Below are positions 12,532-24,083 of a stretch of DNA of 64,000 nt, piece by piece. Made by a program: the position numbers and the translations under genes. This stretch comes from Clostridiales bacterium (GTDB lineage Bacteria; Bacillota; Clostridia; Oscillospirales; Oscillospiraceae): contig JAAVHV010000021.1 of assembly GCA_014799505.1 (NCBI GenBank), positions 1 to 64,000 on the forward strand, in the 5' to 3' direction. How positions within the stretch are numbered: position 1 is the first letter of the stretch; every line of letters begins with the position of its first letter. The notes under the pieces are model-generated. The model did not search any database. It was not told where the DNA came from and was given only the letters and a program-made list of their open reading frames with translations.

Positions 12532-12684
12532 AAAACCTCCCAAAAGCCGTCCAGATCGGGCGGTTTTTGCGTGTCAGCGGCAATTCCCCAAGCCCGCCCT
12601 CGCTTCCGGTCAACGTATTGGTCATACCTTGTGATTATGGGGCAACCCCCTGTTACGATGCCTTTGTGCGCAGTTTGGGCATGA

Positions 12685-12790
12685 CGGTTACACGGAGGGA
12701 TCGAACCCCCTCGCGCCGGCCCTTCGGCGCCACCAATAAGGCCCGGCTCATTCTCAGCCGGGAGAGATGCGTTCGCCCCGGAAGCTACCG
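12685..12790 (-). ncRNA. tRNA-like structured RNA (candidate), 3' of DIP1984-family gene
   Basis: Minus strand: T-arm GGGGG-UUCGAUC-CCUCC (12694-12710), hairpin GCGCCG-AAGGGC-CGGCGC (12713-12730), hairpin CCCGGCU-GAGAAUG-AGCCGGG (12742-12762), imperfect closing stem CGGUAGC/GUAACCG. Confidence 0.6.
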
Positions 12791-12799
12791 ACTGCCGCG

Positions 12800-13252
12800 T
12801 TACATCAATTCGGTGGCCCAGTTGGCGGACTGGATGGAGTTGTCCAGCAACCGCAGGTCGCGCGCCTGTGCATCCACCTGCTTTTGCAGCTCCTTCACGT
12901 TCACGGTGCTGAGCAGCTTGATCTCCGTGTGGGTGGCCCGTCGGCCCAGCTGGCTGGCGCTGTATACCAGGTCGCGGTAGGCGCTGAGCTTCAGCTTCAG
13001 CGCGTCCCTCCGGGCCAGCAGGGCGGTGAGGTTTTCGCCCTCTACCAGAGTTTGGCAGTTGGTCAGGTTGATCCGGGTAATGAGCGACTCCAAGTTGGAA
13101 ACGCAGCCGTCCAGCTCGGTCAGCAGCTCCTGGGGGTTCTCGGCGGGAGACTCGCCTTCTTGAACAATGGCGTTGGTACTCAGCCGCTGCTGGAGCTGTT
13201 GGATGCGGCGATTCAGATCCGCCCGCTCCTGTAAGGCTTCCGCTAATTTCAT
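12800..13252 (-). CDS. DIP1984 family protein
   Basis: 150 aa; MKLAEALQERADLNRRIQQLQQRLSTNA...DNSIQSANWATEL family pattern. Confidence 0.88.
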   Translation of the reverse strand: MKLAEALQERADLNRRIQQLQQRLSTNAIVQEGESPAENPQELLTELDGCVSNLESLITRINLTNCQTLVEGENLTALLARRDALKLKLSAYRDLVYSASQLGRRATHTEIKLLSTVNVKELQKQVDAQARDLRLLDNSIQSANWATELM

Positions 13253-13268: not shown

Positions 13269-14567
13269 TTACACACCCGCGCCCACGGGCGCTTTGTCTG
13301 CTTCCTGCTTAGCCAAAGTCTTGGCGTTTGCCAGCATCAGCTTGATGCGGTTCTCCTGGTTGATTTTCGTGGCGCCGGGGTCGTAGTCGATGGCCACGAT
13401 GTTGGAATTCGGGTAGTCGTCCTTGAGACGGCGGATCATGCCCTTGCCCACGATGTGATTGGGCAGGCAGCCAAAGGGCTGTGTACAGACAATGTTAGGC
13501 ACCCCGGAGTGGATGAGCTCCAGCATCTCGCCGGTGAGCAACCAGCCCTCGCCCATCTTGTTGCCGTCGCCCAGATAGCCCTGTACCAGCTTGTGCATAT
13601 TCTCAAAGGTGCCGGGGGCGCGGAAGCGGCTCTTTTTCAGCGCCGCAATCATATCTTTCTGACAGGCCTCAATGTAGCCCTTGAATATCTGGCAGAACTT
13701 CTTTTTTACCCACAGCCCGCCGTAGATGTTCACATCCACCTCGCGATTGAAGATTTTAAAAATCATGAAGTCGGTGAGGCCAGGCACCACAGGTTCAGCG
13801 CCCTCAGAGAGGAGAAAATCTTCCAGATTGTTGTTGCCCAGGGGAGAGAATTTCACGTAGATCTCGCCGACGACTCCCACCCGCACCTTTTCCTCATGGG
13901 AGATAGGGATAGTTTCAAAGTCGGCCAGGATGGCGTCGAAATTGGCCCGCATCTGCTTGCGGCTCATGCCGCGGCCTGCCTGAAAGCTGTCAATGAGCTT
14001 GCTCTGCCAGTGATCCAGCATCCTGTCGGTGTCGCCGGCGGTAAGCTCATAGGGGCGCACTTGGTTGGCCGCGTTGACCAGCAGATCGCCGTACATCATG
14101 CCGTAGATCAGCTTGCGGATCAGGGGAAGCGTAAGAGAGAAGCCGGGATTTTTCTCCAACCCGGACAGGTTCACCGAGATCACGGGCACGAATTCCAGCC
14201 CCGCCTTTTCCAGCGCCTTACGAAGCAGGTGGATGTAGTTGGATGCCCGACACCCGCCGCCGGTCTGGGTGATGAACAACGCGATTTTGTGGGGATCGTA
14301 TCCGCCGTTTTTGATCGCGTCGATGAGCTGCCCAATGACCAGCAGGGCTGGGTAGCAGGTGTCGTTGTGGACATATTTCAAGCCCTCATCAATAATCCCT
14401 CGATGATTGGTGTTAAGCATATCTACTTTATAGCCCTCTAACACCAATAACTGACGGAACATTCCGAAGTGAACGGGGAGCATCTGGGGCATCAGGATGG
14501 TGTACTCCTCTTTCATCTCCTTGGTGAAGAGCAGCCGTCCGTCTTTGTCGTAAACCAATTCAGCCAT
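13269..14567 (-). CDS. 2-hydroxyacyl-CoA dehydratase component-like protein
   Basis: YVHNDTCYPALLVIGQLIDAIKNG, GGGCRASNYIHLLRKALEKAG; paired with the activase gene. Confidence 0.75.
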   Translation of the reverse strand: MAELVYDKDGRLLFTKEMKEEYTILMPQMLPVHFGMFRQLLVLEGYKVDMLNTNHRGIIDEGLKYVHNDTCYPALLVIGQLIDAIKNGGYDPHKIALFITQTGGGCRASNYIHLLRKALEKAGLEFVPVISVNLSGLEKNPGFSLTLPLIRKLIYGMMYGDLLVNAANQVRPYELTAGDTDRMLDHWQSKLIDSFQAGRGMSRKQMRANFDAILADFETIPISHEEKVRVGVVGEIYVKFSPLGNNNLEDFLLSEGAEPVVPGLTDFMIFKIFNREVDVNIYGGLWVKKKFCQIFKGYIEACQKDMIAALKKSRFRAPGTFENMHKLVQGYLGDGNKMGEGWLLTGEMLELIHSGVPNIVCTQPFGCLPNHIVGKGMIRRLKDDYPNSNIVAIDYDPGATKINQENRIKLMLANAKTLAKQEADKAPVGAGV

Positions 14568-14630
14568 AGTCAAATTTCCTTTCACGTTGGGTCAGCTATC
14601 CCGGACAGCCCAGGCGAGTTGTCCGATAGG

Positions 14631-17570
14631 TCAGTTGTCATGGCGTTTGCGCTCCTCCATCGCCGCCATCAGGGAGCGGATTCGGATCTTTACCGCGCCC
14701 AGGTTGCTAATGTCGTCGATTTTCAACTGGGTGTAAAGCTTTCCACCTTGCTCCAAGATGGAGCGCATTTCATCGCCGGTAATGGCGTCGGTGCCGCAGC
14801 CAAAGCTCACCAGCTGCACCAGCTGCATATCGGGCTGCTCGCACACATACCGAGCGGCGTTGTACATACGGGCCTGGAAGGTCCACTGGTTGAGTACTTT
14901 GCGGGGGGCATAGCTCTCATGGAAAGCCACCGCGTCCTCACTGACCAGCACGAAGCCAAAGGAGGTGATCAGGTCGTTGATACCATGGTTGATCTCCGGG
15001 TCGATATGATAAGGGCGGCCCGCCAGCACAATGATGGGCAGACCTTTGGCGCGAGCCTCGTCGATATACTGCTGGCCAGTATGGTGAACGTCCTCTTTAT
15101 AGCGGTCATAGGCCTGGTATGCCGCGCGGATGGCGTTGACGGCCTCCTTGCGGGGGACGCCGAAGGTATCGGCAAACCACTGGGAGCCGATGCGCTCATA
15201 ATCGCGGGGGCGGTGCAGTCCGGCGTAGGGGTTGAGGAACCGGGTCTTTTTCAGATCGGGCATATTTGCCGCCAATAGCTCGGGGTAGTAGGCCACCACA
15301 GGGCAGTTATAGTTGTTGTCCGACGACTTTTCGTCGAAGTTATAGGACATACAGGGGTAGAAAATGGCGTCTACTCCCGCATCCACCAGGGCCTCCACAT
15401 GGCCGTGAAGCAGCTTGGCGGGGTAGCACACCGTGTCCGATGGGATGGTGCGCTGGCCTTTGATGTACAGCTTCCGGGAGGATTCGGGGGAGAGCACCAC
15501 CTCGAAATTCAGCCGGGTGAACAGCTCAAACCAGAAGGGGAGGTTTTCGTACATATTCAGCCCGAAGGGAATGCCGATGCGCCCCCGGGAGCCGTTGCCG
15601 AAGCCCTTGCCCTCCATAGCCCGGAGCTTTTCATATTTGTAGCGGTACAGGTCGGGAAGCTCCGCCTTCTCCTTGCCCAAGGGCCGGGAGCAGCGATTGC
15701 CGGAGATAAACCGCCGTCCGCCGTCAAAGGTGTTGACCGTGAGGGAGCAGTGGTTGGTGCACAGGTTACAGGTAACGGGTTTGGCGCTGTGTGAAAAAGA
15801 CTGTAAGGCGGATTCACTTAACAGTATTGACCGCTCCAGTTTCAGATCCCGGGCGGCCAGCGCCGCGCCAAAAGCCCCCATGATGCCCGCGATGGTGGGA
15901 CGGGTGACGTCCCTACCCAGCTCCTGCTCAAAGGCTCGGAGCACTGCGTCGTTGTGGAAGGTGCCGCCCTGCACCACGATGTGCCTGCCCAGGTCGTCGG
16001 CGCTGGCGGCGCGAATGACTTTATAGATGGCGTTTTTCACGATGGAGATGGACAGGCCTGCGCTGATGTCCTCTACGCTGGCTCCGTCCTTCTGGGCCTG
16101 CTTGACGCTGGAGTTCATGAACACGGTGCACCGAGAACCCAGGTTCACCGGCTTCTGGGTGAACAGGCCCAGCTTGGCAAAGTCGGCGATGTCATAGCCC
16201 AGCGCCTTGGCGAAGGTTTCGATGAAGGAACCGCAGCCGGAGGAACAGGCCTCGTTGAGCATAATAGAGTCCACCGCGCCGTTGCGGATCTTGAAGCACT
16301 TCATGTCCTGCCCGCCGATGTCAATGATGAAGTCCACGTTGGGGTTGAAGTGGGCGGCGGCGCGGTAGTGGGCCACCGTTTCCACCAAGCCCAGGTCGCA
16401 GGAAAAGGCGTTTTTAATAAGATCCTCGCCATAGCCGGTGACAGCGGAGCCGCGAATTTTGATGCGGTCACCGCACAGCTTGTAGATCTCCTTGAGCTGT
16501 TCCAGCACGAGGGCCACCGGATTGCCCAGATTGGAGTGGTAATAAGTATACAGCAGTCCGCCGTCCGGGGCAATGAGGACGATTTTTGCAGTCGTGGAAC
16601 CGGAGTCGATGCCTAAGTACGCGTCCCCAGCGTAAGTGTTGATGTCCAACTGGGGCGGAGTGGAGGCGTTGTGCCGGGCAGTGAACGCATCGTAATCAGC
16701 CTCGCTTTCAAACAACGGCGGCATGGTATCCACCACCGATGTGGCCCCCCGGCTCTCCTCCAGCAGATGAAGCAAGTCGTCAAAGGGTCTGACCTCGTAG
16801 TCGGAGGCGCACAGCGCCGCCCCCATGGCGGCGAAGCAGTCGCCGTCTTCCGGGAAGATGGCGTGGGCCTCGTCCAGTTGGAGGGTGTCCACAAACCGCT
16901 CCCGCAGCCCCATGAGGAAGTGGAGGGGGCCGCCCAGAAAGACCAGCTTGCCCTTCAGCTCCCGGCCCTGGGTGAGACCGGCCACGGTCTGATCCACCAC
17001 GGCCTGGAAGATGGACGCGGCCACATCCTCCTTGCGCCCGCCCTGGTTGAGGATGGGCTGGATATCGCTCTTGGCAAACACGCCGCACCGGGAGGCGATG
17101 GGGTAAATTTTCTCATGTTTGAGGGAAAGCTCGTCCAGCTCGTTCACAGTGACGTTCATGAGGGTAGCCATCTGGTCAATAAACGCCCCGGTGCCCCCGG
17201 CGCAGGAACCGTTCATCCGCTCCTCCAGCGCGCCGCCGAAGAAGATGATCTTGGCGTCCTCACCGCCCAACTCAATGACGGCGTCAGTATCCGGGATATA
17301 GGTATTCACTGCGGCGGCGGTGGCGTACACCTCCTGAACAAAGTCCAGCCCCGCGGCCTTGGCTACGCCCAGTCCGGCGGAGCCGGTGACCACCAGGCGT
17401 ACATCCTTGCCGCTCAGCATATCCTCAATGGAGCGCAGGGTCTCGCAGGCCCGCTCCCGGGCCTTGGAATAGTGCCGCTCGTAGGAGCGGAACAGCAGTT
17501 TGTTATTCTCATCCAGCACCACCACTTTGACGGTAGTGGAGCCGATGTCAATGCCAACGCGTAGAATCAT
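14631..17570 (-). CDS. acyl-CoA dehydratase activase (two BadF/BadG/BcrA/BcrD ATPase domains plus DUF2229-like region)
   Basis: 979 aa; two ATPase domains (GIDIGSTTVKVVVLD and GIDSGSTTAKIVLI), cluster-binding-type GSCAGGTGAF and EACSSGCGSFIE. Confidence 0.9.
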   Translation of the reverse strand: MILRVGIDIGSTTVKVVVLDENNKLLFRSYERHYSKARERACETLRSIEDMLSGKDVRLVVTGSAGLGVAKAAGLDFVQEVYATAAAVNTYIPDTDAVIELGGEDAKIIFFGGALEERMNGSCAGGTGAFIDQMATLMNVTVNELDELSLKHEKIYPIASRCGVFAKSDIQPILNQGGRKEDVAASIFQAVVDQTVAGLTQGRELKGKLVFLGGPLHFLMGLRERFVDTLQLDEAHAIFPEDGDCFAAMGAALCASDYEVRPFDDLLHLLEESRGATSVVDTMPPLFESEADYDAFTARHNASTPPQLDINTYAGDAYLGIDSGSTTAKIVLIAPDGGLLYTYYHSNLGNPVALVLEQLKEIYKLCGDRIKIRGSAVTGYGEDLIKNAFSCDLGLVETVAHYRAAAHFNPNVDFIIDIGGQDMKCFKIRNGAVDSIMLNEACSSGCGSFIETFAKALGYDIADFAKLGLFTQKPVNLGSRCTVFMNSSVKQAQKDGASVEDISAGLSISIVKNAIYKVIRAASADDLGRHIVVQGGTFHNDAVLRAFEQELGRDVTRPTIAGIMGAFGAALAARDLKLERSILLSESALQSFSHSAKPVTCNLCTNHCSLTVNTFDGGRRFISGNRCSRPLGKEKAELPDLYRYKYEKLRAMEGKGFGNGSRGRIGIPFGLNMYENLPFWFELFTRLNFEVVLSPESSRKLYIKGQRTIPSDTVCYPAKLLHGHVEALVDAGVDAIFYPCMSYNFDEKSSDNNYNCPVVAYYPELLAANMPDLKKTRFLNPYAGLHRPRDYERIGSQWFADTFGVPRKEAVNAIRAAYQAYDRYKEDVHHTGQQYIDEARAKGLPIIVLAGRPYHIDPEINHGINDLITSFGFVLVSEDAVAFHESYAPRKVLNQWTFQARMYNAARYVCEQPDMQLVQLVSFGCGTDAITGDEMRSILEQGGKLYTQLKIDDISNLGAVKIRIRSLMAAMEERKRHDN

Positions 17571-23804: not shown

Positions 23805-23955
23805 AGAATTGATACAATTGTACTATAGATTTGGGCGGTTGTCAAGGAGAACAAAAACATTCGTTTTAAAAATGTTCGACATCATTCGACAAAAATGGGG
23901 GTTGCATTCTCTGTACATATGGCGTATAATGTGGGCGAAACAAGTGAATGAATTG

Positions 23956-24083
23956 TCTTCAGGGCGGGGTGAAATTCCCCACTGGCGGTAAAGGGTTCTG
24001 CCCCAAGTCCGCGACCCGCGAAAGCGGCTGACCCGGTGAAATTCCGGGACCAACGGTACAGTCCGGATGGAAGAAGACGCGTA
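23956..24083 (+). ncRNA. FMN riboswitch (RFN element)
   Basis: TCTTCAGGGCGGGGTGAAATTCCCCACTGGCGGTAAAGG...CCCGCGAAAGCGGCTGACCCGGTGAAATTCCGGGACCAACGGTACAGTCCGGATGGAAGAAGA. Confidence 0.97.

What the first reader, a model, noticed from the sequence alone, without database searches (positions are those of the whole stretch)
12685..12802. tRNA-like RNA encoded immediately downstream of a DIP1984-family gene
Just after the DIP1984 stop codon (minus strand) there is a compact structure with a canonical T-arm (GGGGG-UUCGAUC-CCUCC), a long variable-arm-like hairpin (GCGCCG-AAGGGC-CGGCGC), a 7-bp/7-nt hairpin (CCCGGCU-GAGAAUG-AGCCGGG) and an imperfect acceptor-like closing stem (CGGUAGC with GUAACCG). 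It is not a normal tRNA: the hairpin loop lacks U33, there is a roughly 10-nt linker between arms, and no CCA follows. Tight linkage to DIP1984 suggests a protein-RNA pair. tRNA-like RNAs have been described as cognate partners of scaffold proteins in bacterial RNA-repair systems; I cannot confirm that this is the same class, and no RtcB/SPFH gene is visible nearby.
Basis: partly seen in the sequence, partly recalled or inferred. Interest (0 to 1): 0.78.

Follow-up and report, generated by a model that had tools for sequence, protein, structure and literature searches.

The report
New RNA paired with DIP1984 protein
Right behind the gene for the uncharacterised bacterial protein DIP1984 lies a roughly 220-base folded RNA that accompanies this gene in bacteria of at least eleven phyla, on plasmids and in phages, yet matches no family in the RNA database searched; the pair sometimes sits in RNA-repair operons or large tRNA gene arrays, which suggests an unrecognised RNA-protein particle for coping with damaged RNA.

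Summary
The feature is real but larger than reported, and it is not a tRNA. On the minus strand, window 12576-12798 encodes a ~220-nt RNA that starts 1 nt after the DIP1984 stop codon. It has a closing stem, a long covarying helix, two pseudoknots, a tRNA D-loop-like GGTAG and an optional T-arm. A covariance model built without this genus finds it (59.4 bits, E 2.8e-17). The same RNA follows DIP1984 in 97 of 100 loci searched, at a median of 3 nt from the stop codon, in at least 11 phyla. Strong copies without DIP1984 are almost absent: 0 of 42 relatives, and one partial copy in 283 Bacillota. Base pairs covary strongly: 383 double changes against 118 in shuffles. No Rfam family fits it. DIP1984 matches only its own unannotated PDB entry, 3kdq. 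Neighbours in some lineages are RtcB, RtcA, RlaP, Ro60 with its own YrlA Y RNA, and tRNA arrays. RtcB is absent from this genome and is not enriched genome-wide. Best reading: a dedicated RNA-protein particle of the RNA-damage or translation-stress response, with the RNA cut from the DIP1984 transcript. Structure and pairing with DIP1984 are well supported; function is inferred. There is no transcript or binding evidence.

The parts
12576..12798 (-). The whole structured RNA (proposed 'DIP1984-associated RNA'), 223 nt, starting 1 nt after the DIP1984 stop codon
   Evidence: R1 match 105.5 bits (this genome was in R1's training set); R2, built without this genus, 59.4 bits, E 2.8e-17, the only hit in the window
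12800..13252 (-). DIP1984 family protein (DUF6847), 150 aa, four-helix protein
   Evidence: NF038048 and PF20935; AlphaFold2 pLDDT 96, matches only 3kdq at E<=0.001
12792..12798 (-). P1 5' strand GCGGCAG, pairs with 12577-12583
   Evidence: P1 helix mean 6.5 bp against 4.3 with swapped partners in 88 loci
12577..12583 (-). P1 3' strand TTGCCGC
12785..12793 (-). D-loop-like motif AGTCGGTAG (GGTA[AG] in 101 of 108 loci)
   Evidence: resemblance to the tRNA D-loop is from general knowledge
12778..12784 (-). P2 5' strand CTTCCGG, pairs with 12603-12609
12603..12609 (-). P2 3' strand CCGGAAG
12770..12775 (-). Inner helix 5' strand (CGAACG of the GGCGARYAC motif), pairs with 12611-12615, one bulged G
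   Evidence: homologous pairs 97-100% paired in A2
12611..12615 (-). Inner helix 3' strand (CGTTG of the ACC..GTRCTGAT motif)
12764..12768 (-). PK1 5' strand ATCTC, pairs with 12750-12755
   Evidence: C/G to U/A and U-G variants across the family; CTC/GAG and CCC/GGG variants
12742..12762 (-). P3 hairpin CCCGGCTGAGAATGAGCCGGG; its loop (12750-12755) is the PK1 3' strand
   Evidence: 88% of cells paired, all five pairs with double changes
12713..12730 (-). P4 hairpin GCGCCG-AAGGGC-CGGCGC
   Evidence: 62 double-change cells against 29 in shuffles, 0 of 500 as high
12719..12722 (-). PK2 5' strand GGGC in the P4 loop, pairs with 12677-12680
   Evidence: 88% paired in A2; found independently by RNAalifold; variants GAGC/GCTC, GAAC/GTTC, GGAC/GTCC
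12694..12710 (-). T-arm-like hairpin GGGGGTTCGATCCCTCC (optional in the family)
   Evidence: 40 of 108 loci against 0.9 in shuffles
12677..12680 (-). PK2 3' strand GCCC
12586..12601 (-). Conserved G-rich strand GAGGGCGGGCTTGGGG between P2 and P1
   Evidence: several invariant columns in A2
12547..12563 (-). Imperfect hairpin followed by TTTT between the RNA and the GNAT gene, possible terminator
   Evidence: read directly from the sequence; conserved as a hairpin in relatives; not flagged by the consensus scan

Best explanation
DIP1984 and this RNA are the two halves of one dedicated ribonucleoprotein. The RNA is encoded in the same transcript, just after the DIP1984 stop codon, and is presumably cut or trimmed from that messenger. 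It folds into a closed, double-pseudoknotted core (P1, P2, P3 with PK1, P4 with PK2). DIP1984, a small all-helical protein, binds it. The particle works as an accessory of the RNA-damage or translation-stress response: its tRNA-elbow-like elements (GGTAG loop, T-arm) would let it engage tRNA-handling enzymes, tRNA fragments or ribosomes, in the way Ro60 with YrlA gates an RNA-processing enzyme. Shown here: the conserved fold, strict linkage and co-loss with DIP1984, and physical linkage in some lineages to RtcB, RtcA, RlaP, Ro60 and tRNA arrays. Inferred: processing into a separate RNA, binding by DIP1984, and the stress role. My estimates: real conserved RNA 0.98; functional unit with DIP1984 0.92; trans-acting particle rather than cis element 0.7; stress or tRNA-related role 0.55.
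For: RNA present in 97 of 100 loci scanned, nearly all DIP1984 loci, median 3 nt after the stop in 94 loci, in at least 11 phyla. A model built without this genus hits the window at E 2.8e-17. Covariation: 88.5% of cells paired against 71.3% shuffled, 383 double changes against 118, slid versions at most 47% paired; P1, P4 and PK2 by RNAalifold. Co-occurrence: 18 of 18 relatives with DIP1984 have the RNA and 0 of 42 without; in 300 Bacillota all 17 with DIP1984 above the cut-off have it adjacent, with one partial and one weak hit elsewhere; in 194 Cyanobacteria 6 of 7, the seventh at a contig end, with only short 21-23-bit hits elsewhere. Co-loss at the same site: L129 and L130 lack both; L128 lost the gene and most of the RNA together. 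Contexts: Acinetobacter rtc operon, Cohnella Ro60/RlaP/RtcB operon, RtcB next door in Leptolyngbya and Halomicronema, tRNA arrays, 137 tRNAs in 87 loci against about 12 expected. Literature: A. baumannii rtcB and the gene directly downstream rise 252-fold under tigecycline (PMC7652931).
Against: No transcript, processing or binding data exist here. Most loci, including the window, have no RNA-repair gene or tRNA array nearby, and RtcB is absent from this genome and not enriched in DIP1984-bearing genomes (9 of 17 against 163 of 300). The T-arm is missing in over half of the family, so the elbow-mimic idea cannot be general as stated. DIP1984 is not strongly basic (median net charge -1). No promoter was seen for the RNA alone.
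Confidence: 0.55

Rival explanations
1. A cis-acting 3' UTR element. The RNA never works as a free molecule; DIP1984 (or a ligand) binds the 3' end of its own messenger to control its stability or translation.
For: Always on the same strand, median 3 nt after the stop codon; no separate promoter found; autoregulation would explain strict co-occurrence.
Against: 215 nt with two pseudoknots and a closing P1 is far more than known 3' UTR protein-binding elements need. The RNA can lie 76-275 nt downstream behind inserted repeats or about 520 nt downstream, and be duplicated, in viral loci L106 and L108. Conservation is comparable to that of the protein.
Confidence: 0.2
2. An RNA-protein toxin-antitoxin pair, in the manner of type III systems: DIP1984 is harmful and the pseudoknotted RNA neutralises it.
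For: Small protein with adjacent pseudoknotted RNA; patchy distribution, plasmids and phages; gained and lost as a unit; tandem copies in some genomes.
Against: DIP1984 has no nuclease or ToxN-like domain and no PADLOC match, and its fold matches only 3kdq. The RNA lies after, not before, the gene and is not a tandem repeat array. RtcB and Ro60 operons are an odd home for a toxin.
Confidence: 0.1
3. It is a known tRNA-like RNA of RNA-repair operons: a YrlA Y RNA, or the tRNA-like RNA reported for SPFH/Band-7 proteins.
For: D-loop-like and T-loop-like motifs; RtcB, RtcA, RlaP and Ro60 neighbours in some lineages.
Against: No Rfam match to this RNA at all. In Cohnella a separate YrlA (38-49 bits) lies upstream of Ro60 while this RNA lies after DIP1984. 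No SPFH domain among the 25 commonest Pfam families of 126 neighbour proteins, and the RNA follows DIP1984, not SPFH.
Confidence: 0.03
4. A chance or degenerate tRNA, with no function.
For: Single-sequence folding energy is unremarkable (z -0.89); weak tRNA-Sec resemblance, 17 bits.
Against: Covariation, distribution and the out-of-genus model hit; ARAGORN finds no tRNA there.
Confidence: 0.01

Closest known systems
Ro60 (TROVE/Rsr) with bacterial Y RNA (YrlA, RF02553) in rsr-yrlBA-rtcBA operons
   Same: Small structured RNA with D-loop and T-loop resemblance next to the gene of its presumed protein partner; occurs in RtcB operons; in Cohnella the two pairs are neighbours.
   Different: Different protein (DUF6847, no TROVE domain), about twice the length of YrlA's 114-position model, two pseudoknots, no Rfam YrlA match, and usually found without RtcB or Ro60.
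tRNA-like RNA associated with SPFH/Band-7 proteins in RNA-repair systems (Burroughs and Aravind 2016, from memory; paper not held)
   Same: Idea of a scaffold protein with a cognate tRNA-like RNA in RNA-repair loci.
   Different: Partner here is DIP1984; no SPFH domain among the common neighbour families; overall fold is not tRNA.
GOLLD and ROOL ornate RNAs near tRNA islands (PMC12286853, PMC9569102)
   Same: Structured RNAs of unknown function with pseudoknots, often in tRNA arrays, phages and plasmids.
   Different: Much larger (ROOL and GOLLD reach several hundred nt) and without a known protein partner; no Rfam match here.
Type III toxin-antitoxin RNAs (ToxI/ToxN)
   Same: Pseudoknotted RNA with an adjacent small protein gene on mobile DNA.
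   Different: RNA after the gene, not tandem repeats; protein is an all-helical DUF, not a ToxN-like nuclease.
DIP1984 family protein / DUF6847 (PDB 3kdq; called 'septicolysin' in Acinetobacter plasmid papers)
   Same: The protein half belongs to this family.
   Different: The family has no assigned function, and no RNA partner was found in the literature that could be searched.

Membership tests
DIP1984 family (NF038048 / PF20935) | Score above the curated cut-off over the full length | tested here: met
   177 bits against 70, residues 2-149 of 150; PF20935 170 bits against 27
DIP1984 family (NF038048 / PF20935) | Fold of 3kdq | tested here: met
   predicted model TM 0.96 to 3kdq, 43% identity
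tRNA | Cloverleaf with acceptor stem and anticodon arm recognised by tRNA models | tested here: not met
   ARAGORN none at the site; best tRNA-clan hit is tRNA-Sec at 17 bits, threshold 47
tRNA | T-arm with 7-nt T-loop | tested here: met
   12694-12710; but present in only 40 of 108 homologues
YrlA / bacterial Y RNA | Match to the RF02553 covariance model | tested here: not met
   no match of this RNA; in Cohnella, YrlA is a separate RNA in the same operon
YrlA / bacterial Y RNA | Encoded next to and bound by Ro60/TROVE | tested here: not met
   TROVE neighbours only in four Cohnella loci, where DIP1984 lies between TROVE and this RNA; binding not testable
SPFH/Band-7-associated tRNA-like RNA | Linkage to an SPFH/Band-7 gene | tested here: not met
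   no SPFH domain among the 25 commonest Pfam families of 126 neighbour proteins
SPFH/Band-7-associated tRNA-like RNA | Same secondary structure as the published RNA | not testable with these tools
   the publication is not held
Type III toxin-antitoxin | ToxN/AbiQ-type endoribonuclease | tested here: not met
   Pfam shows only DUF6847; no PADLOC match; no PDB fold match other than 3kdq
Type III toxin-antitoxin | Toxicity of the protein, neutralised by the RNA | not testable with these tools
   needs expression
Any Rfam 15 family | Match at or near a gathering score | tested here: not met
GOLLD / ROOL | Match to the Rfam models; very large size | tested here: not met
   no match; model length 215 positions

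The most novel reading that the evidence does not exclude
A previously unrecognised, phylum-spanning ribonucleoprotein: a ~215-nt double-pseudoknot RNA with tRNA-elbow-like motifs and its own protein, DIP1984, forming a mobile accessory module for RNA damage and translation stress, beside but independent of Ro60-Y RNA and RtcB.
Probability: 0.5. Interest if true: 0.9.

Novelty: categorically new. Interest (0 to 1): 0.8.

Why it matters
A structured RNA that spans at least eleven bacterial phyla, plasmids and phages, has a dedicated protein partner of unknown function, and matches no curated family would be a new class of bacterial RNA-protein particle. It gives the orphan family DIP1984/DUF6847 (structure 3kdq, deposited 2009 without a function, and mislabelled 'septicolysin' in Acinetobacter plasmid papers) a testable partner. 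Its recurrence in RtcB/RtcA, Ro60/YrlA and tRNA-array settings makes the open question of what bacterial RNA-repair operons act on directly testable. Because A. baumannii plasmids, cyanobacteria and common soil Bacillota carry it, existing RNA-seq data could be checked at once with the alignment described here.

Tried and rejected
Single-sequence folding was uninformative. A kink-turn reading of GGCGA/TGA was considered and dropped because C33-G175 covaries as a Watson-Crick pair (C-G to U-A). Pairing of GGTAG with the conserved ACYACC was considered and dropped, since ACNACC varies without matching changes in GGTAG. Genome-level association with RtcB was tested and not found. A G-rich DNA motif search of viral contigs gave one chance match. 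G311 looked like an orphan RNA, but only its 3' half resembles the family; the 5' half lies in an open reading frame. The apparent DIP1984 gene without RNA in cyanobacterium G497/L048 ends at a contig edge. Nothing was found in PADLOC or the searchable literature.

Full report
WHAT WAS CHECKED. The window is part of a 65%-complete draft genome (G000). ARAGORN sees no tRNA there. No Rfam family reaches threshold; the best is tRNA-Sec, 17 bits against 47.

HOMOLOGUES. Plasmid and genome searches brought DIP1984 loci from Chloroflexota, Cyanobacteriota, Bacillota, Acidobacteriota, Pseudomonadota, Armatimonadota, Planctomycetota, Deinococcota, Campylobacterota, Bacteroidota and Actinomycetota, and from viral contigs. 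At least 528 relatives were confirmed in the genome collection and 80 were kept. Nearly all carry the same RNA directly after the gene.

STRUCTURE. An unsupervised covariation scan (G-test with average-product correction, 100 sequences) put its top fifteen or so column pairs into one long helix joining the 5' region to the 3' region. On a 60-sequence alignment, the proposed structure (P1, P2 with inner helix, P3, T-arm pairs, and pseudoknots PK1 and PK2) has 88.5% of cells paired against 71.3% in shuffles, 383 against 118 double-change cells, and a covariation score of 0.470 against 0.205. No shuffle in 500 reached any of these values. Sliding the partners by 1-3 columns drops pairing to 27-47%. 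P1, tested without alignment in 88 loci, averages 6.5 bp against 4.3 with swapped partners. P4 has 62 against 29 double-change cells. RNAalifold, given 43 sequences without this genus, found P2, the inner helix and PK2 on its own. PK2 changes sides together: GGGC/GCCC, GAGC/GCTC, GAAC/GTTC, GGAC/GTCC.

INDEPENDENT TEST ON THE WINDOW. Model R2, built from other genera only, finds window 12576-12798 minus at 59.4 bits (E 2.8e-17, rough calibration) and nothing else in 64 kb. It also finds all relatives tested, and Acinetobacter at 26.8 bits. The window's structure, read directly: P1 12792-12798/12577-12583; P2 12778-12784/12603-12609; inner helix 12770-12775/12611-12615; PK1 12764-12768/12750-12755; P3 12742-12762; P4 12713-12730; PK2 12719-12722/12677-12680; T-arm 12694-12710; G-rich strand 12586-12601.

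LINKAGE. The RNA starts a median of 3 nt after the DIP1984 stop in 94 loci. Among 60 relatives, 18 of 18 genomes with DIP1984 have the RNA and 0 of 42 without. In 300 Bacillota, all 17 genomes with DIP1984 above the cut-off have it adjacent, and G279 has it beside a DIP1984 fragment; elsewhere there is one partial copy (G311) and one 20.7-bit hit. In 194 Cyanobacteria, 6 of 7 have it adjacent, the seventh ends at a contig edge, and other hits are short fragments at 21-23 bits. At the window's own site, relatives L129 and L130 join the upstream gene directly to the GNAT gene, lacking both DIP1984 and the RNA. L128 has lost DIP1984 and most of the RNA, leaving its 3' tail. The pair is gained or lost as a unit.

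CONTEXT. In A. baumannii the order is rtcR | RNase Z-like, RtcB, hypothetical, DIP1984, RNA, rtcA. In four Cohnella genomes it is YrlA Y RNA, Ro60/TROVE, DIP1984, this RNA, with RlaP and RtcB following in some of them. So this RNA is not the Y RNA. RtcB also follows in Leptolyngbya and a Halomicronema MAG. Several loci lie in tRNA arrays of 6-24 tRNAs in cyanobacteria, Acidobacteriota and viral contigs: 137 tRNAs in 87 loci, where about 12 would be expected at 60 tRNAs per 4 Mb, concentrated in nine loci. Against a simple RtcB story, this genome has no RtcB, and RtcB is no commoner in DIP1984-bearing Bacillota (9 of 17) than overall (163 of 300). Literature links: tigecycline raises A. baumannii rtcB and the next gene 252-fold (PMC7652931); in Anabaena a 26-tRNA array and rtcB are repressed by one regulator and released by translation stress (PMC10272220).

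PROTEIN. AlphaFold2 on 53 DIP1984 sequences gives a confident four-helix model (pLDDT 96) whose only PDB matches at E<=0.001 are two chains of 3kdq, deposited without a function. Conserved residues are mostly polar (R10, R23, N62, T64, N65, R82, R105, E110, R134, D137, Q141, N144, W145); median net charge is -1. RNA binding is therefore inferred from linkage, not from the fold.

MECHANISM AND RIVALS. I prefer a dedicated RNA-protein particle in RNA-damage or translation stress; the steps shown and inferred are listed under the best explanation. The main rival is a cis-acting 3' UTR element. The insertions of 76-275 nt between gene and RNA, and the duplicated RNAs in viral loci L106 and L108, argue against it without excluding it. 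A toxin-antitoxin pair is less likely.

LIMITS. No expression or binding data. E-values from the shortened calibration are rough. Genome scans over 40 genomes used stricter filters that can lose weak matches. The literature search covers open-licence papers only, so prior description of this RNA in a subscription paper cannot be excluded; that is the main risk to the novelty rating.

Noticed in passing
L108:3533-4022; L106:3989-4993: Viral contigs carry two copies of the RNA near one DIP1984 gene.
   Followed up: partly
window 12623-12680 and homologues: The stretch after GCCC holds quasi-repeats of TGTNAC (about three or four copies, roughly 10 nt apart) that are conserved but show no clear pairing; possibly a repeated protein-binding site. 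Unexplained.
   Followed up: no
L004, L006, L007, L018, just after the DIP1984 stop: A repeat containing CCTTTTTCTTTCAAGAAAAAGG (or close variants) is inserted between the gene and the RNA in some relatives, leaving both intact.
   Followed up: no
L054, L067, L072, L080: Cohnella operons hold YrlA Y RNA, Ro60, DIP1984 and this RNA side by side, with tRNA clusters in the same 10 kb; RlaP and RtcB follow in some of them: a compact natural system for comparing two RNA-protein pairs.
   Followed up: partly
L031, L033, L034, L035, L039, L058, L110, L111: DIP1984 and its RNA lie in large tRNA gene arrays of cyanobacteria, Acidobacteriota and viral contigs.
   Followed up: partly
L126:2501-3179 (pAB0057, NC_011585): The common small A. 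baumannii plasmids annotate DIP1984, sometimes as 'septicolysin', and carry a divergent copy of this RNA (24-27 bits).
   Followed up: partly
L123:3662-3841 (G311): A partial RNA (3' half only) without DIP1984, in a region with ParB-like and DNA methylase genes.
   Followed up: partly
window 23951-24082 +: FMN riboswitch, 120 bits; ordinary.
   Followed up: no
window 13269-17570 -: 2-hydroxyacyl-CoA dehydratase activator-like genes (BcrAD_BadFG, DUF2229) upstream of DIP1984; ordinary.
   Followed up: no
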